This document shows positions 2,144 through 11,049 of a stretch of 64,000 nt of DNA, in pieces (position 1 is the first letter of the stretch; each line of letters begins with the position of its first letter). Both the position numbers and the translations under genes were made by a program. The notes beneath the pieces are model-generated. The model was not told where the DNA came from and searched no databases. It saw nothing but the letters and a program-made list of their open reading frames with translations. Source of the stretch: Thermocatellispora tengchongensis (lineage in GTDB: Bacteria > Actinomycetota > Actinomycetes > Streptosporangiales > Streptosporangiaceae); assembly GCF_014202315.1 (NCBI RefSeq), contig NZ_JACHGN010000035.1, positions 1-64,000 on the forward strand. Reading direction: 5' to 3'.

Positions 2144-2356
2144 ATGGTGGAGCTGCGGAAGCATGCGCGGGTGGCGGGCGCGGAGCGGGAGTCGCTGAAG
2201 GCGGACCTGAAGCGTCGGTATGCGGCGGGGGAGTCGATTCGTGAGCTGGCGGCTTCGACGGGCCGTTCGTATGGGTTCGTGCATCGGCTGCTGGTGGAGG
2301 CGGGCGCGCTGCTGCGGCCGCGGGGCCGGGTTCGGCGGGTGAATGCCGGTGCTTAG
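2144..2356 (+). CDS. Small helix-turn-helix regulator
   Basis: A 70-residue protein from ATG 2144 with GGTGGAGG just upstream. The core, YAAGESIRELAASTGRSYGFVHRLL (about residues 28-52), is a compact helix-turn-helix like that of the small HTH proteins widespread in Streptomyces and relatives, in which SYGFVHR forms the recognition helix. The C-terminus is basic. The stop codon overlaps by 4 nt the 3' end of the convergent gene on the minus strand (2353-2949). It probably binds DNA; its target is unknown. Confidence 0.75.
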   Translation: MVELRKHARVAGAERESLKADLKRRYAAGESIRELAASTGRSYGFVHRLLVEAGALLRPRGRVRRVNAGA

Positions 2357-2949
2357 GTGAGGTGGCTGGCGAGATAGTTCACCAGAATGCCCACGGGCAC
2401 GGAAGCGAGGCCGCCGGTGATGAGGAAGAGTACGTTACGTAGACGCTCGGTCCGTGTTTCCCCAGGGACTTCAGACGTGAGGATCTCCCGGATCTTCTCC
2501 GCCTCGTCTCTGCTGAGCTCGAGGAGTTGCTGGTGTTCCCGAGCCTGGGCGATCAGAGCGTCCCTGGCTGCCTTCTGCTCGTCGATTGCCTGCTGCGCCT
2601 GGGCGATTAGCGTTTCACGTACCGCCTTCTGCTCATTGATAGCCTGTTGGACCTTATCCAAGTAGTCAGCGAACTCGTCATACGCCTTCTGGAACTTTTC
2701 GGCGCGTCGAGTGATCTCTGTAACAGGGTCGTCCGCCGCGAGCTGATCTCTCCTTCGAGCACGGCGCTCGATGACGAAGAGCGTCGCGGCGCCCACCACG
2801 AGGGTGGCCACGATCACGATGGTGGTGCGTAGCCAGGATTCGCTGTCTGCTGCGGACACGATCGAGGCCACGCCCACGAACCCACTGAAGATCCCGAACC
2901 GCCAGGAGTTCCGCTCAAGCGGCTCGCGGTCGCGGGGCTGTTCGCTCAT
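2353..2949 (-). CDS. Membrane/coiled-coil protein, paralogue A
   Basis: A 198-residue protein of unknown function. Two hydrophobic segments lie near the N-terminus (FGIFSGFVGVASIVSAA and TTIVIVATLVVGAATLFVI). A long Ala/Glu/Lys/Gln-rich coiled coil follows, then a C-terminal membrane segment (LFLITGGLASVPVGILV). The coil holds a short duplication (AQAQQAIDEQKAARDALIAQ preceded by a similar unit). The last third is clearly related to the gene just upstream (3043-3555). ATG 2949 (MSEQPRD...) is preferred because AAGGA lies directly upstream; a longer frame reaches 3027. The topology would suit a membrane-anchored exclusion or sensing protein, but that is inference. Confidence 0.7.
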   Translation of the reverse strand: MSEQPRDREPLERNSWRFGIFSGFVGVASIVSAADSESWLRTTIVIVATLVVGAATLFVIERRARRRDQLAADDPVTEITRRAEKFQKAYDEFADYLDKVQQAINEQKAVRETLIAQAQQAIDEQKAARDALIAQAREHQQLLELSRDEAEKIREILTSEVPGETRTERLRNVLFLITGGLASVPVGILVNYLASHLT

Positions 2950-3042
2950 CCTTGTATTGCACAGCATCGTCAGATGGCGTGCCACCGTTGTGATCAGACC
3001 GCGATCGGCAGAGGCTATGGCGCGCAAGGTGCGCGCTGCGGC

Positions 3043-3555
3043 TTAGCTGATGCTGTTGACCCAGATACCGATGGGGATGGACAGGGCAGCGGACACGAGC
3101 ACGCCGGCGAGGAAGAAGCCCCATTCGCGTCGCAGTTCGGCGCGGATTGTTTCCTTGGTTTCGCCGGTGAGGATCTTCCGGATCTTCTCGGCATCTTCCT
3201 TGCTCACAGAGAGGACTTGTCGCTGTTCTTCGGCTTGGGCGATGAGAGCATCACGGGCGGCTTCTTGGGCGGCGAAGTCGCGCTGTAACTCCTGCATGAG
3301 TGTGGCCGCCTCGTCGAATGCTCTGTTGACGCGCCGGATGCGGCGGCGAAGTACCTCGACAGGGTCTTCTTCTGCTTGCCTCAGCCGTTCCGAACCCTCA
3401 AGTATGGACGATGCAAGCCCGTATGACAGCAACGCTATCGGCGTGGCAACCAAGACGGCGTGCTCGATCCTGTTGAGGACCATCCATATGGCGAGGCCAA
3501 AGGGGATCGCTGCTGCGGCAGCGACCAAGAGCGTGTAGAGCTTTCGGCGGTGCAT
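3043..3555 (-). CDS. Membrane/coiled-coil protein, paralogue B
   Basis: A 170-residue protein with two N-terminal membrane segments (YTLLVAAAAAIPFGLAIWMV and AVLVATPIALLSYGLA), a charged coiled coil, and a C-terminal segment FFLAGVLVSAALSIPIGIWV. It shares with the downstream gene a near-identical stretch (AARDALIAQA, then AEKIRKILT against AEKIREILT) and the ending IPIGIWVNS / VPVGILVNY. The two lie 93 nt apart on the same strand and form one unit. Divergent to it is a plus-strand operon, and a palindrome (3642-3665) lies between. Function unknown. Confidence 0.75.
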   Translation of the reverse strand: MHRRKLYTLLVAAAAAIPFGLAIWMVLNRIEHAVLVATPIALLSYGLASSILEGSERLRQAEEDPVEVLRRRIRRVNRAFDEAATLMQELQRDFAAQEAARDALIAQAEEQRQVLSVSKEDAEKIRKILTGETKETIRAELRREWGFFLAGVLVSAALSIPIGIWVNSIS

Positions 3556-4256: not shown

Positions 4257-4399
4257 GCGACCTCGCCGCGCTGGCCGGCCTGGGCATCCTCGTGGCGCTG
4301 ATGTGCCCGTTGGCCGCGCGCGTTGCGGACGGTGCTCGCGCCGAGCTGTACGCCTGGCAGGAGAATCGGGCCGCGCGTCGAGGCGGTGAAGGTCGGTGA
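4253..4399 (+). CDS. Very small membrane-associated protein
   Basis: A 48-residue protein from GTG 4253, overlapping its neighbours on both sides (GTGA at each). One hydrophobic helix (LAALAGLGILVALMCPLAARV) is followed by a charged tail ending RAARRGGEGR. It is likely a single-pass membrane peptide made with the integrase. Function unknown. Confidence 0.6.
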   Translation: MSDLAALAGLGILVALMCPLAARVADGARAELYAWQENRAARRGGEGR

Positions 4400-5364
4400 C
4401 GGACGAGCTGGTCGAGGCGCCTCGCGGCGACCTCGCGCTTCCGCTCGACCTGCCGCCGCTCGTCGTGGAGATCACGCAGATGTGGCTGGAGACCCGCCGG
4501 TCGCCGAACACTCGAGAGGCGTACCGGCGCGCGATCCGGCTGTGGTTCTCCTACTGCGAGCGCACGGGCCTGGATCCGCTGGAGATGTCGGTGCGGCACG
4601 CCGAGCTGTACGCCCGGTGGATGGTCGAGAGCGCCGACCGGACGCCGACGCCGAAGACGATCGCGCAGCGGATGTCGGCGGTGTCGGCCTGGTACAAGTA
4701 CCTGATCAAGAACGACGCCGCCCGGTTCAACCCGTTCGCGGAGGCGGACCGGCCGACTATCCCTCGTCGGCACTCCGAGACGACGGCGTTGACGGAGGAC
4801 GAGGCGCACACCTTGGTCCAGGCCGCCGACAAGGACCATGGTCGGGAGAGGTTGCGCACCGCGGCGCTGATCCGAATGCTGGTCCAGGTCGGGCTGCGCA
4901 TCACGGAGGCGGTGGGTGCGGAGATCGACGACCTGGGATTCTCGCGGGGCTATCGGACACTGCGGCTGACGTTGAAGGGCGGCAAGCCGCACTTTCGGAA
5001 GCTGCCGGTGGAGACGGTGTACGCCCTGGACCAGTACCTCGAGGAGCGGGCGAGCCGGGCCGGGGTGGAACTGCGGGACCTTCATGGGCCGCTGTTCGCT
5101 ACCGGCTCGGGCCGGCCGCTGCCGCGCGAGAAGGCATGGGAGTTGGTGCAGCGGATCGCCCGCCAGGCCGGGATCACCTCGAAGGTGACGCCGCACACGC
5201 TGCGGCACACCTGGGCGTCGATCGCGGAGGCGCGGGGTGCGAAGCCGCGCGAGATCCAGGAGGCCCTGGGCCATGAGTCGTTCGAGACGACCCTGATCTA
5301 CCTGCATTCTCGCGACCAACTGGAGAAGGACCCATCGCAGTTGGTGGCGTCGGCGGTCGAGTAG
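4396..5364 (+). CDS. int: Tyrosine integrase (XerC/D-like)
   Basis: A 322-residue site-specific recombinase that cuts and joins DNA for integration and excision. The N-terminal SAM-like core-binding domain covers about residues 20-115 (ETRRSPNTREAYRRAIRLW). The catalytic domain follows with Arg168 (GLRITE), Lys194 or Lys197 (TLKGGK), His267-Arg270 (HTLRH), His293 (LGHE) and nucleophile Tyr302 (IYLHS). The whole catalytic set is present, so it should be active. The start is GTG 4396, overlapping the previous stop. It is the only integrase in the window. It lies more than 52 kb from the putative right end, and at least 4 kb of element-type genes lie to its left, which is unusual because att sites normally sit beside int. 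Confidence 0.95.
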   Translation: MTDELVEAPRGDLALPLDLPPLVVEITQMWLETRRSPNTREAYRRAIRLWFSYCERTGLDPLEMSVRHAELYARWMVESADRTPTPKTIAQRMSAVSAWYKYLIKNDAARFNPFAEADRPTIPRRHSETTALTEDEAHTLVQAADKDHGRERLRTAALIRMLVQVGLRITEAVGAEIDDLGFSRGYRTLRLTLKGGKPHFRKLPVETVYALDQYLEERASRAGVELRDLHGPLFATGSGRPLPREKAWELVQRIARQAGITSKVTPHTLRHTWASIAEARGAKPREIQEALGHESFETTLIYLHSRDQLEKDPSQLVASAVE

Positions 5365-5738: not shown

Positions 5739-5957
5739 TCAGGCGTTGTCGCCGTCGTCGCTCTTCCCGGTACTTGAGAAGATCGCCTTAGCCCATTCCA
5801 CAAACCGGTCAAGCACTTCCAGTAGCCAATCGCGTCGGTCCTTCGAGAGGGCGACGGAGAGAGCTAGCGCTGGCACGAAAGCCAGCACTGCCACCATCAG
5901 CGGCAGCGCCATTAGGGCTGCGACGATCACGCGCAGCCACAGAGGGAAACCAGACAT
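5739..5957 (-). CDS. Small membrane protein with amphipathic tail, copy 1
   Basis: A 72-residue protein from ATG 5957 (AAGGA 7 nt upstream). One or two hydrophobic helices (residues about 5-38) are followed by a charged amphipathic helix, LLEVLDRFVEWAKAIF, and an acidic tail. The tail resembles that of the next minus-strand gene (ILELVREFTSWIKAAK), so the two look like diverged paralogues. Each has a long, structured, AT-richer leader of its own. A membrane-active role such as exclusion or toxicity is possible but not shown. Confidence 0.65.
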   Translation of the reverse strand: MSGFPLWLRVIVAALMALPLMVAVLAFVPALALSVALSKDRRDWLLEVLDRFVEWAKAIFSSTGKSDDGDNA

Positions 5958-6295: not shown

Positions 6296-6487
6296 TTAAG
6301 ACGTACTCTTTGCGGCCTTGATCCAGCTAGTGAACTCTCGGACTAGTTCCAGGATGAACCCGCGACCCGACTCGCGGAACGGCAGGTACAGCCACACGGG
6401 AAGTGACAGCAGGATGATCGCCAGCAGCGGAAGGATAAGTAGGGCGACGATAAGAGCACGTTGCCACCGCGGCAGGGGCATAAGCAT
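6296..6487 (-). CDS. Small membrane protein with amphipathic tail, copy 2
   Basis: A 63-residue protein from ATG 6487 (TAGGGA upstream). A hydrophobic block (RALIVALLILPLLAIILLSL) is followed by a short polar link and the amphipathic helix ILELVREFTSWIKAAK. It resembles the 5739-5957 product in size, order of segments and tail. A longer frame upstream to 6565 crosses hairpin-rich leader sequence and is less likely. Function unknown. Confidence 0.6.
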   Translation of the reverse strand: MLMPLPRWQRALIVALLILPLLAIILLSLPVWLYLPFRESGRGFILELVREFTSWIKAAKSTS

Positions 6488-6977
6488 GGATGAGTCCCTA
6501 AGACGACACGAAAACAGAGGGAAAGCCCACGCATTACAAGCGTGGAATGAAACCCGCGCAGACACTGCGCAGGGAAATTCCGCACGACAAGGCGTGCGGT
6601 TGAAGGGAGCTACAACGACGTCAAACGATCGCTAGTAGATGCGTTAGCCCGGAGTTCACTGGTCTAGAAGCTGCGTCGTGTCTCATGCGAGTTCGTGTCG
6701 TCTTAGAGATCGTGAGGCAGGGTTCACAGGTCTTACTGCAGGGCGTTGATCTAATTCGGCGTCGAGTCCTTGTCGATGGTCCCTTGGAACCGGTGAGTAG
6801 AGAGTACACCCGTGGCGCAGGGTGCGTGGTCGGGATCCCCTTAACTTCTGTCGTGGTCCTGCGGAAATAGCGGATAAACGGCGTATCTAGCGACAATCCA
6901 CCTCTAGGGCGCTTGTGGTTGCAGTCGCATGCGGCCCCTGACCTACTCGTACCATTCAGCTCATCGCGGAGGTTGCC
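6488..6977. promoter_or_regulatory. Intergenic region with two hairpins
   Basis: A 490-nt gap of lower GC with no supported gene. Near its left end are two compact hairpins in tandem: GCGCAG/CTGCGC (6556-6570) and CCGCACG/CGTGCGG (6580-6599), placed as a leader for the minus-strand 6487 gene. The right part should hold the promoter for the plus-strand 6978 gene and the late genes, but no clear -35/-10 pair was found by eye. Confidence 0.4.
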
Positions 6978-7616
6978 GTGCCCGCCATCGTCCCCCAGGC
7001 GTACCGCATGGTCCCGCTCGGCGACCTGGAGCCGCACCCCGACAACCCCCACAAGGGCGACGTGGATGTGATCGCTGAGTCGATCGAGAAGAACGGCTTC
7101 TACGGCACGGTCCTGGTCCAGAAGTCCCGGATGAGGATCATCGCCGGTGAGCACCGCTGGCGCGGCGCGAAGGCCAACGGCCTGGACAAGGTGCCCGCCC
7201 TGCTCATTGACGTAGACGACAAGACCGCCACGCGGATCATGCTCGCCGACAACCGCACCGCCGAGTTCGGTGCGTACGACGACCAGGCCCTTGCCGAGCT
7301 CCTGCGCGGTCTGGACGACCTCGACGGCACCGGGTGGACAGAGCAGGACCTCGACGACCTGGCCGAAGCGATCGCAGCCGACAACGCCGCGGTGGCCCTC
7401 GCCCCCGGAGGAGCCCCGGCCCCGGGCGGCGGCCGCGCCGATCAGGCCGGGACCGGCGCTCGCGCCGAGGAGGAGCTGCCTGAACCGGGAGACGCCGAGA
7501 CCCACACGCGCCCTGTGGTGTGGGGCGTGGTGGTCACCTGCGACAGCGAAGCGCAGCAGGTGCAGCTCCTCGACCAGCTCGCCGGTCAGGGCTGGAACGT
7601 CCGCGCCCTGATGTAA
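6978..7616 (+). CDS. ParB-like nuclease/CTPase-fold protein
   Basis: A 212-residue protein from GTG 6978 with GGAGG upstream. The N-terminal half is a ParB/Spo0J-type domain: PLGDLEPHPDNPHKGD (about 13-28), then GEHRWRGAKANG (about 57-68), matching the G-x-x-R signature of the family. An acidic and Pro/Gly-rich linker follows, and a short C-terminal unit begins WGVVVTCDSEAQQ. Phage ParB-like proteins of this size occur near terminases and are linked to DNA modification, nicking or regulation rather than plasmid partition; no ParA is present. The start is followed closely by the ABC/GNAT gene on the same strand. Confidence 0.85.
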   Translation: MPAIVPQAYRMVPLGDLEPHPDNPHKGDVDVIAESIEKNGFYGTVLVQKSRMRIIAGEHRWRGAKANGLDKVPALLIDVDDKTATRIMLADNRTAEFGAYDDQALAELLRGLDDLDGTGWTEQDLDDLAEAIAADNAAVALAPGGAPAPGGGRADQAGTGARAEEELPEPGDAETHTRPVVWGVVVTCDSEAQQVQLLDQLAGQGWNVRALM

Positions 7617-7650
7617 CCCCTGCCGCCACTACCCCTTGAAAGGTCGTGCT

Positions 7651-8736
7651 GTGCGAGCCGAGATCACGGTATCGGCGCCGGTCCATAAGACCGCCCGCGT
7701 GCTGCAGCTTCAGGGCCTGTTCGACGTGCCCGTAGAGGAGCGGCTGAGCAACTCCTGGCACATGGACGTGCCGATCGAGGAGCGGCCGTGGAGCGTCGGA
7801 ATGATCGTCGGCCCTTCGGGGGCCGGTAAGACGACTATCGCGCGTCACCTGTGGCCGGACCTCGTCGTCACGTCCCACACCTGGCGGGATGACCGGGCGT
7901 TGGTGGACGACTTCCCCGAGGGCATGTCCATCAAGGACATCGTGGCTCTGCTGGGCGCAGTCGGCCTGTCATCGCCGCCGGCGTGGCTGCGGCCTTACCG
8001 CACGCTGTCGAACGGGGAGGCGTTCCGCGCGTCGATCGCGCGGGCGCTGGCCGAGTCGGGCGACCTGGTCGTCATCGATGAGTTCACGTCGGTCGTGGAC
8101 CGCCAGGTCGCGAAGGTCGCCAGCCACACCATCCAGAAGGCTGTACGGCGCGGCGGCCGCCAGTTCGTCGCCGTGACCTGCCATTACGACGTGCTGGAGT
8201 GGCTGCAGCCGGACTGGGTGCTGGATGTGTCCACCGGCTCGTTTGAGTGGAGGTCGGTTCAACCCCGACCGGCACTCGAGTTCGAGATCCGGCCGGTCGA
8301 TGGACGGCTATGGCCCGTCTTCGCACGTCATCACTATCTGAGTACGCAGCTCCACGCCTCCAGCAAGAAGTTCGCCGGGTTCATCGACGGCGAGCCTGTC
8401 GCGTTCCTGGCCTACAGGCACTTCCAGCATCCCCACACACGCAACCTGAAGATGGAGCACCGGCTGGTGGTTTTGCCCGACTATCAGGGGCTCGGCATCG
8501 GGAGCCGGTTCTCCGAGTGGATGGGGCAGCGCCTGTATGAAGAGGGGTTCCGCTACCGGTCGGTGTCCAGTCACCCGGCGCTGATCGCGTATCGGAGCGC
8601 GTCGCCGAGATGGCGGATGATCAAGGGCCAGACGAAGCTCGGCACCCGCTCCAAACACGAGTGGATGCACACGCACACGCTCGACCCGCGCCGGCTCGGC
8701 GTCGTGTCGTTCGAGTACGTGCCGCCGCGTGTCTAG
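7651..8736 (+). CDS. ABC-type ATPase fused to a GNAT-like acyltransferase
   Basis: A 361-residue two-domain protein from GTG 7651 (GAAAGG upstream). The N-terminal ATPase has Walker A GPSGAGKTT (about 54-62), an ABC signature LSNGEAFRASIARAL (about 119-133), Walker B DLVVIDEFTS (about 138-147) and an H-loop VTCHYD. No transmembrane partner exists, so it is not a transporter. The C-terminal GNAT-like half includes HHYLS and RLVVLPDYQGLGIGSRF (about 271-287), the acyl-CoA loop pattern. The layout matches COG2401, described as an ABC ATPase fused to a predicted acetyltransferase. Phage Mu Mom is also GNAT-like and modifies adenine, so base or RNA modification is a reasonable but unproven role. 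Neighbours are ParB-like and ASCH proteins. Confidence 0.85.
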   Translation: MRAEITVSAPVHKTARVLQLQGLFDVPVEERLSNSWHMDVPIEERPWSVGMIVGPSGAGKTTIARHLWPDLVVTSHTWRDDRALVDDFPEGMSIKDIVALLGAVGLSSPPAWLRPYRTLSNGEAFRASIARALAESGDLVVIDEFTSVVDRQVAKVASHTIQKAVRRGGRQFVAVTCHYDVLEWLQPDWVLDVSTGSFEWRSVQPRPALEFEIRPVDGRLWPVFARHHYLSTQLHASSKKFAGFIDGEPVAFLAYRHFQHPHTRNLKMEHRLVVLPDYQGLGIGSRFSEWMGQRLYEEGFRYRSVSSHPALIAYRSASPRWRMIKGQTKLGTRSKHEWMHTHTLDPRRLGVVSFEYVPPRV

Positions 8737-9107
8737 GCGGCGAACGCCTGCTCCCACCCGGCCGGAGCCGGCCGTAAACCGAGCGCTCCAATAGCGGTCA
8801 TCGGCCTGACCGCTGGCTGAGCGTCGGCGAGCAACCAGTGATTCTCGCCGAGTCTGGCCCACGGCGACGGGCTGTCCCTGCGGATGTCGGTGAGATTCAC
8901 CGATCCGAGGATCACGCCGTGCAGTAGCGGCCCTTCGAGGGCGACCCCAAGCTGCTCCATCAGCTCGAAGCCTTCGGCGTCGGTTTTGCGGCCCGCGTGG
9001 ATGAGGAGCCCTCCGCGGTACCGCGTGGTCCAGGGCCGGTTCTCCACGTCCTTGATGCCCGCGACGATCAGCGCCGCCCAGGGCTGCCGGACGGTCAGCA
9101 TCCGCAT
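8733..9107 (-). CDS. ASCH-domain protein
   Basis: A 124-residue protein, convergent with the ABC/GNAT gene (4-nt overlap). It shows the ASCH signature: LTVRQPWAALIVAGIKDVEN, then RYRGGLLIHAG. ASCH domains bind RNA or modified bases, and one branch (YqfB) removes acetyl from N4-acetylcytidine. Its placement beside a predicted acyltransferase is suggestive. ATG 9107 was chosen; ATG 9101 and GTG 9116 are also possible, and none has a strong ribosome site. Confidence 0.8.
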   Translation of the reverse strand: MRMLTVRQPWAALIVAGIKDVENRPWTTRYRGGLLIHAGRKTDAEGFELMEQLGVALEGPLLHGVILGSVNLTDIRRDSPSPWARLGENHWLLADAQPAVRPMTAIGALGLRPAPAGWEQAFAA

Positions 9108-9148
9108 TTGCCGCACCCGAGAAGCGTAATAGATCAGGAGTTCCCCTC

Positions 9149-9634
9149 ATGGTTGTCAGCAAGGCACGCCAGGTCGAGATCTCCCAGCGCCGCTACCAGG
9201 CCGTGCAGATGCGGATCGCCGGGGTGTCGCCCACGGTCATCGCTGAGCGGCTGGGCTACTCGGGTGCAGCGTCGGTGTCCAAGGACATCGACCGGGCTCT
9301 GCAGAAGGCTGCCAAGCAGGAGCAGATGGCGTCGGAGCAGCTTCTCCGACTGGAGATCGATCGCCTCGACCGGATCATGGCGTCGCTGTGGCCGAAGGTT
9401 ATCAAGGGCGAGGTCAACGCCTGCGAGACCGCGCTGAAGTGCATCAACCGGCGGGCGAGCCTGCTCGGCCTGGACCTGATCAACAGGCAGGGCGTCGCTG
9501 ACGGGGACATGGCGTCGCTGCTGGGCAACCTGCTGCTGCAGCTCCAGCAGCGGCACGCCATCCCTGACCCGGACACCGACACGATCCTCGACGCCGAGGT
9601 CATCCACGAGATCGAGCCGGGGGACGACCTGTGA
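9149..9634 (+). CDS. terS: Terminase small subunit (putative)
   Basis: A 161-residue DNA-packaging protein expected to recognise the phage genome and load the large terminase. An N-terminal HTH (RIAGVSPTVIAERLGYSGAA, about 26-45) is followed by a long helical region for oligomerisation and an acidic C-terminus. The start is ATG 9149 with AGGAG 8 nt upstream, and the stop overlaps the large-subunit GTG. Small terminases are poorly conserved, so the call rests on this coupling, size and HTH. Confidence 0.8.
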   Translation: MVVSKARQVEISQRRYQAVQMRIAGVSPTVIAERLGYSGAASVSKDIDRALQKAAKQEQMASEQLLRLEIDRLDRIMASLWPKVIKGEVNACETALKCINRRASLLGLDLINRQGVADGDMASLLGNLLLQLQQRHAIPDPDTDTILDAEVIHEIEPGDDL

Positions 9635-10917
9635 GCACGCCGGCGCCGAGCCCGCTCACGCTGTCGCCCAAGCAGGAGAGGTCCATAGCGGAGTCCACGG
9701 CCCGCCTGAACATCTGGTCGGGCGCGATCCGGTCGGGCAAGACCATCGCCAGCCTCCTGCGCTGGCTGATCTACATCGCGCAGGCGCCCCGTGGCGGTTC
9801 GCTGGTGATCGTCGGGAAGACGAGCGACACGATCGCGAGAAACGTCTTTGATCCGCTCACGGACCCGGCGATCACCGGCCCGGTCGCGCGCCGCATCATC
9901 TACACCCGCGGCGCCCCGACCGCGAACATCCTCGGCCGCCGCGTCGAGATCATCAGCTCGAACGACGCCCGGTCGGAGAACCGGCTGCGAGGCATGACGT
10001 GCGCCGGCGCCTATGTCGATGAGGCGACGCTGATCGAGCGTGAGTTCTGGGACCAGCTCCTCGCCCGTCTCAGCGTCAAGGACGCCAAGCTGTTCGCCAC
10101 AACCAACCCGGACGCGCCGAACCACTGGTTGAAGCGGCAGTTCCTCGACCGGCGACACGAGCTGGACCTGCGGCACTGGCACTTCACGTTGGACGACAAC
10201 AAGGCGCTGGACCCCGCCTACGTGAAAGCGCTCAAGGCCGAGTACCAGGGTCTTTGGTACAAGAGATTCATTCTGGGGCAGTGGGTCATGGCCGAAGGCG
10301 CGATCTACGACATGTTCGACCCGGACCGGCACGTCGTGGACGTGTTGCCGCCGATGGAGCGGTGGCTGACGCTGGGGATCGACTACGGGACCGTCAACCC
10401 GTTCGACGCCATCCTCGTCGGCGTGTCCACCCCGGACAACACCGGCCAGAGGCGCATCTACCTCGCCAGCGAGTTCCGATGGGACTCTCGCGCGGAGCGG
10501 CGGCAGCTCACCGACGCCGAGTACTCGCAGAAGCTCACCGACTGGCTAGACAACATCCCCGACACCTACGGCCCTGGCACCCGCGGGGTGCGGCCGCAGT
10601 GGGTGGTGGTGGACCCCTCCGCCGCGAGCTTCATCACCCAACTCCATCGCGATGGCTTCACCCCAACCATGGGCGACAACTCCGTCAACGACGGCATCCG
10701 CACCGTGTCGAACCTGCTGGGAGCGGACCACTTGCGGGTCCACCGGTCGGTGTCCGGGTTCCTCGACGAGGTCGGGTCGTACGCCTGGGACGACAAACGG
10801 GCGGAGAAGGGCGAAGACGTCCCCGTGAAGGTGGACGACCACGCCTTGGACGCCACCCGGTACGCCCTGCACACCACTCAGGCGGCCTGGCTGCCGCTGT
10901 TGCAGCCGGTCTTCTGA
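9631..10917 (+). CDS. terL: Terminase large subunit
   Basis: A 428-residue packaging motor, ATPase plus nuclease. Walker A GAIRSGKT is at about 31-38, Walker B GAYVDEATL at about 126-134, and a coupling-type ATTNPDAP follows. The RNase H-like nuclease has acidic residues in GIDYGT (about 250), VVVDPS (about 325) and DDHALDATRY (about 403). Length and motif order fit the PBSX/Terminase_6-like group. The start is GTG 9631, overlapping terS. All catalytic features are present, so packaging should be functional. Confidence 0.95.
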   Translation: MSTPAPSPLTLSPKQERSIAESTARLNIWSGAIRSGKTIASLLRWLIYIAQAPRGGSLVIVGKTSDTIARNVFDPLTDPAITGPVARRIIYTRGAPTANILGRRVEIISSNDARSENRLRGMTCAGAYVDEATLIEREFWDQLLARLSVKDAKLFATTNPDAPNHWLKRQFLDRRHELDLRHWHFTLDDNKALDPAYVKALKAEYQGLWYKRFILGQWVMAEGAIYDMFDPDRHVVDVLPPMERWLTLGIDYGTVNPFDAILVGVSTPDNTGQRRIYLASEFRWDSRAERRQLTDAEYSQKLTDWLDNIPDTYGPGTRGVRPQWVVVDPSAASFITQLHRDGFTPTMGDNSVNDGIRTVSNLLGADHLRVHRSVSGFLDEVGSYAWDDKRAEKGEDVPVKVDDHALDATRYALHTTQAAWLPLLQPVF

Positions 10918-10926
10918 CCCACGAAC

Positions 10927-10963
10927 GCGCACCCCCCGATCTGTGGCGGGCTGAGGGGTGCGC
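10927..10963 (+). terminator. Hairpin after terL
   Basis: GCGCACCCC (10927-10935) and GGGGTGCGC (10955-10963) pair perfectly over a 19-nt loop, 10 bases after the terL stop. There is no T-tract, as is common in actinobacteria. Confidence 0.55.
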
Positions 10964-10999
10964 CGCTCCGCACGTCCCACCCACGTGCGTCGAGCACAT

Positions 11000-11049
11000 G
11001 GCGCGGTCCTGGCCCCGTAGTTGAGGGGCTGCGCGGCCGGGACCGCGCC
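11000..11049. repeat. Long inverted repeat between terL and structural genes
   Basis: GGCGCGGTCCTGGCC (11000-11014) pairs with 11035-11049 over 15 positions with a single G:T wobble, enclosing 20 nt that can form an alternative CCCC/GGGG stem. It lies in the 215-nt gap before the 11133 gene. It could be a second terminator, a leader structure or a packaging-related site. Confidence 0.5.

What the first reader, a model, noticed from the sequence alone, without database searches (positions are those of the whole stretch)
6978..9107. ParB-like, ABC-ATPase/GNAT fusion and ASCH protein: possible nucleobase acylation set
Seen: three adjacent genes with ParB fold, an ABC ATPase without membrane partner fused to a GNAT-like domain, and a convergent ASCH protein. 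Known: Mu Mom is GNAT-like and modifies adenine; ASCH YqfB removes acetyl from N4-acetylcytidine; ParB-like proteins recur near phage DNA-modification genes. Inference: the fusion may add, and the ASCH protein recognise or remove, an acyl group on DNA or RNA, perhaps as anti-restriction.
Basis: partly seen in the sequence, partly recalled or inferred. Interest (0 to 1): 0.65.

Follow-up and report, generated by a model that had tools for sequence, protein, structure and literature searches.

The report
Phage ParB–ABC–GNAT nucleic-acid modification module
A prophage carries a three-gene cassette, very likely for chemically tagging DNA, whose core is an ATPase–acyltransferase enzyme and a small docking tail on a neighbouring ParB protein; the enzyme idea was already published, but the constant docking tail seems to be unreported and makes the system testable.

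Summary
In detail: a ParB protein, an ABC-ATPase/GNAT fusion and a convergent ASCH gene sit directly upstream of the terminase genes in a prophage. The proposal that this fusion acylates a DNA base is not new: PMC7824862 says Iyer et al. predicted it, and names a phage (pT24) whose protein our query hits. What the tools add is the anatomy. The constant partner of the fusion is not the ParB domain but a ~31-residue tail at its C-terminus. The tail lies upstream in 76/77, 78/80 and 75/78 fetched loci, stands alone as a ~50-residue protein in Mu-like phages, is fused into single ParB-tail-ABC-GNAT proteins, and covaries with the ABC domain. All 18 phage records matched by the tail consensus carry the fusion. 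In close relatives lacking the fusion, ParB has a different C-terminus and ASCH is absent, so tail, fusion and ASCH came as one cassette. ASCH is optional; its YqfB nucleophile is replaced by Glu, so 'reader' beats 'remover'. Best reading: a ParB-guided, ATP-driven nucleobase acyltransferase. DNA as substrate is inferred, not shown.

The parts
6978..7400 (+). ParB/Srx (ParB-CTPase) N-terminal domain, with the GEHR nucleotide-binding motif
   Evidence: Pfam PF02195 E 7e-12; phrog_723 E 7.5e-42; AF2 residues 1-141 mostly pLDDT >90
7401..7517 (+). flexible linker between ParB domain and tail
   Evidence: AF2 pLDDT 50-70 for residues ~142-180
7518..7610 (+). docking tail (VWGVVVTCDSEAQQVQLLDQLAGQGWNVRAL), the constant partner of ABC-GNAT; free-standing as phrog_28816 in Mu-like phages
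   Evidence: HMM hits upstream of ABC-GNAT in 76/77, 78/80 and 75/78 loci; phrog_28816 E 0.008; 18/18 tblastn records carry ABC-GNAT
7651..8274 (+). ABC ATPase domain of the fusion (Walker A GPSGAGKT, signature LSNGE, Walker B VIDEF, H-loop CH)
   Evidence: PDB fold matches Z ~15
8269..8733 (+). GNAT acyltransferase domain (HHYL, HRLVVLPDYQGLGIG acyl-CoA motif, SSHP, W)
   Evidence: PF00583 E 1.6e-6; 1y9k Z 14.7, 5isv RimI Z 14.2; invariant H227 Y228 R270 Q278 G279 G281 P308 W320
8733..9107 (-). ASCH (PUA-fold) protein, ASC-1-like, probable nucleic-acid or modified-base binder; optional companion
   Evidence: PF04266 E 7e-7; human ASC-1 ASCH E 2e-7; K-x-x-E-x-R motif
7367..9129 (.). cassette: ParB C-terminal third with tail + ABC-GNAT + ASCH; absent from the otherwise syntenic relative L111
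   Evidence: blastn against L111 matches 6969-7366 (87%) and 9130-11043 (86%) only
9149..9634 (+). terminase small subunit-like HTH protein (context)
   Evidence: phrog_645, HTH_23
9631..10917 (+). terminase large subunit (context)
   Evidence: PF03237 E 3e-14; TIGR01547 E 3e-37

Best explanation
The cassette is a phage nucleic-acid modification module, most likely acting on the phage's own DNA before packaging. Shown here: an intact ABC ATPase is fused to an intact GNAT acyltransferase, and it has a constant partner, a ~31-residue tail carried on a flexible linker by a ParB protein. The tail can also be a free small protein or part of one fused ParB-tail-ABC-GNAT chain, and its helix covaries with the ABC domain. 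Inferred: the tail docks on the ABC domain, the ParB domain (an NTP switch that holds DNA) brings the complex to DNA, the ABC dimer uses ATP to open or scan the duplex, and the GNAT domain moves an acyl group from an acyl-CoA-type donor to an exocyclic base amine (adenine N6 or cytosine N4), hiding the DNA from restriction. The ASCH protein is an optional reader of the modified base, not its eraser. In Mu-like relatives a formyltransferase-family gene is linked to the module, which hints that a one-carbon unit enters the modification there.
For: Both catalytic domains are complete and conserved. Tail-fusion linkage: 76/77, 78/80, 75/78; the tail consensus finds only fusion-bearing phages, 18/18. 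Natural one-chain fusions L379 and L346 (Pfam ParB_N + ABC_tran + GNAT for L379). Tail residue 18 with ABC residue 163 scores 1.80, above the best inter-protein score of all 16 within-clade shuffles (maximum 1.39); tail 21 with ABC 189 scores 1.40. DNA as target: the closest kin of the fused ParB domain include ParB-N6/N4 DNA methylase fusions, so the same ParB core serves DNA modification enzymes. Late position: next to terminase genes here, and after tail-fibre genes in Mu-like phages as com-mom is in Mu. The cassette is gained and lost as a unit at the ParB C-terminus. Earlier independent prediction of nucleobase acylation for ABC-GNAT (PMC7824862) and for GNAT-EVE operons with ASCH (PMC7641849).
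Against: No modified base has been seen and no direct biochemistry was found. GNAT enzymes modify many substrates; the listed fold matches include a protein acetyltransferase (RimI). No detectable sequence kinship to Mom. Jumbo and some lytic phages carry ABC-GNAT without a detectable tail or ParB, so the tail is not indispensable in every lineage. Covariation rests on ~134 effective sequences and 16 shuffles, and phylogeny inside clades is not fully removed.
Confidence: 0.5

Rival explanations
1. RNA modification: the ATPase-GNAT pair works like TmcA (helicase-type ATPase plus GNAT making N4-acetylcytidine in tRNA), changing host or phage tRNA or rRNA, with ASCH as an RNA binder.
For: ATPase coupled to GNAT is the layout of TmcA (own knowledge). 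ASCH relatives include a ribonuclease and an ac4C amidohydrolase (PMC6972931). Several carriers encode tRNAs nearby (Jace, Pmp13, MismyG).
Against: The partner ParB domain is a DNA-linked module whose close kin include fusions to N6/N4 DNA methylases. The module is tied to late or packaging genes. The ATPase is ABC-type, not helicase-type.
Confidence: 0.15
2. Protein acetylation for host takeover or packaging control: the GNAT acetylates RNA polymerase, nucleoid proteins or terminase.
For: The GNAT domain matches RimI and other acetyltransferases by fold. Phage GNAT Rac acetylates host RNA polymerase (PMC7824862). The gene sits beside the terminase in many phages.
Against: It does not explain the ABC ATPase, the ParB-tail partner or the ASCH companion. 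Position is not always next to the terminase (Mu-like phages, Jace).
Confidence: 0.12
3. Small-molecule or nucleotide modification: the enzyme acylates a free nucleotide or amino acid, with ABC and ParB only sensing nucleotides (defence or counter-defence).
For: The listed fold neighbours of the GNAT include a presumed small-molecule enzyme (1y9k). ParB/Srx proteins bind NTPs, and a ParB-acetyltransferase fusion bound GTP (PMC12704722). A formyltransferase-family gene is linked in Mu-like phages.
Against: The strict adaptor to the ABC domain and the late gene position fit a polymer substrate better.
Confidence: 0.12
4. The three genes are unrelated neighbours in the usual accessory slot before the terminase.
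For: ASCH is often missing, and many ASCH-bearing phages appear to lack the fusion.
Against: Tail-fusion linkage is near universal, with one-chain fusions and covariation. Tail, fusion and ASCH are absent together in syntenic relatives.
Confidence: 0.03

Closest known systems
GNAT coupled to ABC ATPase, predicted nucleobase acylation system (Iyer et al.; Tenacibaculum phage pT24, PMC7824862 section 3.4.7)
   Same: Same enzyme: our protein hits pT24 at 36% identity over 77%; same predicted activity
   Different: Here the enzyme has a ParB partner with a docking tail and an ASCH gene; pT24 has no detectable tail upstream
Mu com-mom
   Same: Phage-late GNAT gene; in Mu-like Komp_PAO1_1 the ABC-GNAT sits after the tail-fibre genes with a small gene overlapping its start, as com precedes mom
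   Different: No sequence match to Mom by profile comparison; ABC domain added; the small protein is the tail, not a Com-like zinc finger
ParB-N6/N4 DNA methylase fusions of phages
   Same: Same ParB core beside or fused to a nucleic-acid modification enzyme (PMC12704722)
   Different: Acyltransferase with ABC ATPase instead of methylase; a tail adaptor instead of direct fusion in most cases
(PIN)-GNAT-EVE with ASCH operons (PMC7641849)
   Same: GNAT with a PUA-fold ASCH companion, proposed to acetylate a DNA base
   Different: No ABC ATPase or ParB named in the passages read; EVE is not found here
YqfB-type ASCH amidohydrolases
   Same: ASCH fold
   Different: Nucleophile Thr24 replaced by Glu; no YqfB hit in the PDB search

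Membership tests
ABC-GNAT predicted nucleobase acyltransferase (Iyer et al.) | ABC ATPase domain with intact Walker A/B, signature and H-loop | tested here: met
   Invariant in 63 sequences; fold Z ~15
ABC-GNAT predicted nucleobase acyltransferase (Iyer et al.) | GNAT domain with acyl-CoA binding motif, fused or adjacent | tested here: met
   PF00583; QGxG invariant; GNAT fold
ABC-GNAT predicted nucleobase acyltransferase (Iyer et al.) | homology to the named example pT24 | tested here: met
   tblastn E 9e-52
ABC-GNAT predicted nucleobase acyltransferase (Iyer et al.) | acyl group on a DNA base | not testable with these tools
   needs nucleoside mass spectrometry
Mom (Mu) family | sequence-profile similarity to Mom | tested here: inconclusive
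   hhalign probability under 1%, but the Mom profile was shallow, Neff 1.2
ParB/Srx superfamily | ParB_N domain with GExR motif | tested here: met
   PF02195 E 7e-12; GEHR in the sequence
Canonical chromosome/plasmid ParB (TIGR00180) | full-length match above cut-off | tested here: not met
   40.5 bits against a cut-off of 58.45
ASCH superfamily | Pfam ASCH above gathering score | tested here: met
   30.3 bits against 21.2
YqfB-type ac4C amidohydrolase | catalytic Lys21-Thr24-Glu74 (and Arg26) | tested here: not met
   K-x-x-E-x-R in place of K-x-x-T-x-R (residues from PMC6972931); matched by motif, not by structure alignment
ABC transporter | membrane partner | tested here: not met
   neighbouring genes are ParB, ASCH and terminases

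The most novel reading that the evidence does not exclude
A ~31-residue adaptor, unnamed so far, is the general specificity dock of a widespread phage DNA-acylation enzyme. It plugs exchangeable targeting domains (ParB, nothing, or direct fusion) onto an ABC-GNAT engine, and in Mu-like phages a linked formyltransferase-family enzyme changes the chemistry to a formyl-derived base, which would be a new class of DNA modification.
Probability: 0.3. Interest if true: 0.85.

Novelty: new variant of a known kind. Interest (0 to 1): 0.55.

Why it matters
Phage DNA modifications decide which restriction systems work. I found no experiment on this predicted system, and it is common: over 450 viral contigs and over 470 places in cellular genomes, from actinobacteria to planctomycetes. 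The tail adaptor gives a concrete handle: a small conserved piece whose binding and loss can be tested, and a signature that finds the system even where ParB is absent. If the linked formyltransferase-family gene really contributes, the base formed would be of an unseen kind.

Tried and rejected
A mixed alignment of ParB and ABC-GNAT fragments with the one-chain fusion misaligned, so it was not folded. Sequence kinship with Mom: no match, but the test is weak. Small gene in Mu-like phages as Com: rejected, it has no zinc-finger cysteines and matches the tail. ASCH as YqfB-like eraser: nucleophile missing. PMC search for direct evidence of acylated phage DNA: none found. The Iyer 2013 paper itself is not held, so whether it mentions the tail or the formyltransferase could not be checked. 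VIA-align listed only ABC and a few GNAT chains; Mom did not appear there, which proves nothing.

Full report
What is there. The window holds a prophage of an actinobacterium with an 11.6 Mb genome; the closest copies of the cassette in named genomes are in Nonomuraea. From left to right come an integrase (4396-5364), ParB (6978-7616), ABC-GNAT (7651-8736), a convergent ASCH gene (8733-9107/9116, minus strand), terminase small and large subunits (9149-10917), minor capsid and P22-like coat genes, and an amidase near 36 kb. The fusion belongs to phrog_11143 over its full length ('unknown function').

Enzyme. In 63 aligned relatives the Walker A lysine, signature serine and glycine, Walker B Asp-Glu, D-loop and H-loop histidine are invariant, as are GNAT residues His227, Tyr228, Arg270, Gln278, Gly279, Gly281, Pro308 and Trp320. 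The AF2 model (pLDDT 92, pTM 0.86) matches solved ABC domains over residues 1-207 (Z about 15, rmsd about 3) and GNAT enzymes over 206-360 (1y9k Z 14.7, rmsd 3.7, 138 aligned; 5isv Z 14.2, rmsd 2.9, 131 aligned). Both halves therefore look active. In Lactococcus P335, Oenococcus and Streptococcus MismyG phages the two domains are separate neighbouring genes behind a ParB gene or a tail-bearing ORF in its place.

The constant partner is a tail, not ParB. Comparing the window with Mu-like Pseudomonas phage Komp_PAO1_1 and Porphyromonas phages showed a 42-49 residue protein just before their ABC-GNAT that resembles the last ~31 residues of the window's ParB. An HMM of that stretch finds it upstream of the fusion in 76/77 loci of the window's viral family, 78/80 of the Mu-like family and 75/78 loci in cellular genomes. 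It has no Pfam family; the free form is phrog_28816, unknown function, which also matches the window's tail weakly. A search of 50,697 phage records with a 33-residue consensus gave 18 records up to E 10, and every one is a fusion carrier. In the Mu-like set ParB itself is almost absent (2/80), while 46 of 50 loci with enough downstream sequence have an overlapping formyltransferase-family gene (PF00551). In the few sequences inspected by eye its catalytic Asn position is not Asn.

Physical coupling. Two planctomycete loci encode one protein with ParB domain, tail, ABC and GNAT in that order (L379, 584 aa; L346, 611 aa, Pfam for L379). In the AF2 model of the window's ParB the core is confident, residues 142-180 are a poorly ordered linker, and the tail is again confident with one helix (pLDDT 88, pTM 0.62), which fits a tethered docking piece. 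In 233 paired sequences, tail position 18 and ABC position 163 have the second-highest coupling of all residue pairs. With tails shuffled within clades, the best inter-protein score in 16 shuffles was 1.39 against 1.80 observed; the second pair (tail 21, ABC 189) scored 1.40. At position 18, Leu/Ile goes with Thr163 (43 cases) and aromatic residues almost never do. This is moderate evidence; some phylogenetic signal remains.

One cassette. The nearest syntenic prophage, L111, matches the window at 6969-7366 (87%) and 9130-11043 (86%) but not between. It keeps ParB with a different C-terminus and goes straight to the terminase. Seven further ParB relatives (L112-L118) likewise lack the fusion and ASCH. 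Tail, fusion and ASCH thus came or went together here. In 50 terminase neighbourhoods, the 4 with the fusion have tail and ASCH, and the 46 without have neither; the 4 are close relatives, so this is one event, not four. Across wider sets ASCH is optional: 14/43 non-redundant viral loci and 14/66 genome loci within 3 kb. The cassette is rare in the host family, 9 of 297 genomes.

ASCH. Its closest solved relatives are human ASC-1 ASCH domains (E 2e-7). YqfB needs Lys21, Thr24, Arg26 and Glu74 (PMC6972931). Nearly all ASCH proteins beside the fusion have K-x-x-E-x-R, so the Thr nucleophile is absent. A reader or nucleic-acid binder is more likely than an eraser; ASCH companions of GNAT-EVE operons have been proposed to bind modified DNA (PMC7641849).

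Target. DNA is favoured because the fused ParB domain's nearest kin include ParB-N6/N4 DNA methylases, because the genes sit with late or packaging genes, and because in Mu-like phages the module sits after the tail-fibre genes, where Mu has com-mom. RNA and protein targets are not excluded. Kinship with Mom could not be shown.

Novelty. The central idea is published: PMC7824862 states that a GNAT coupled to an ABC ATPase was predicted to acylate a DNA nucleobase and names pT24, which our protein hits. I found no report of the tail adaptor, the one-chain fusions or the formyltransferase link, but the Iyer 2013 paper is not held, so priority is uncertain. I call the window locus a variant of that predicted system, defined by the ParB-borne tail.

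Noticed in passing
L095:5110-5727, L096:5128-5601, and 46/50 loci of L119-L198: A formyltransferase-family gene (phrog_9240) overlaps the end of ABC-GNAT in Mu-like phages; its usual catalytic Asn is replaced in the sequences inspected. It may supply a one-carbon group to the modification.
   Followed up: partly
own genome G000:C33:104439-104609 and C17:286877-287047: Short fragments 86-89% identical to ABC-GNAT pieces: remnants of two other, decayed cassette copies in the same genome.
   Followed up: no
L025 and L015: L025 carries two tandem ABC-GNAT genes; L015 carries two tandem tail-bearing genes before the fusion, so the module is sometimes duplicated.
   Followed up: no
L328-L389 (mostly planctomycete genomes): The module is very common in planctomycete contigs, some with nearby terminase genes; their phages are little known.
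   Followed up: partly
L111-L118: ParB of most fusion-less relatives ends in a different conserved C-terminus (PRPKxG...LTAAxHDEVxxL...), perhaps a dock for another partner.
   Followed up: no
window 2353-3027, 3043-3555, 5739-5957, 6296-6565 (minus strand): Two pairs of similar small predicted membrane proteins between the window start and the cassette, on the opposite strand; function unknown.
   Followed up: no
L104 (Rhizobium phage RHEph10) 3971-4615: A related ABC ATPase without GNAT next to two ParB-like genes: possibly the same engine with another enzyme.
   Followed up: no
G294:C28:76371-77453: A family relative whose ABC-GNAT has one in-frame TAG, probably a decaying copy.
   Followed up: no
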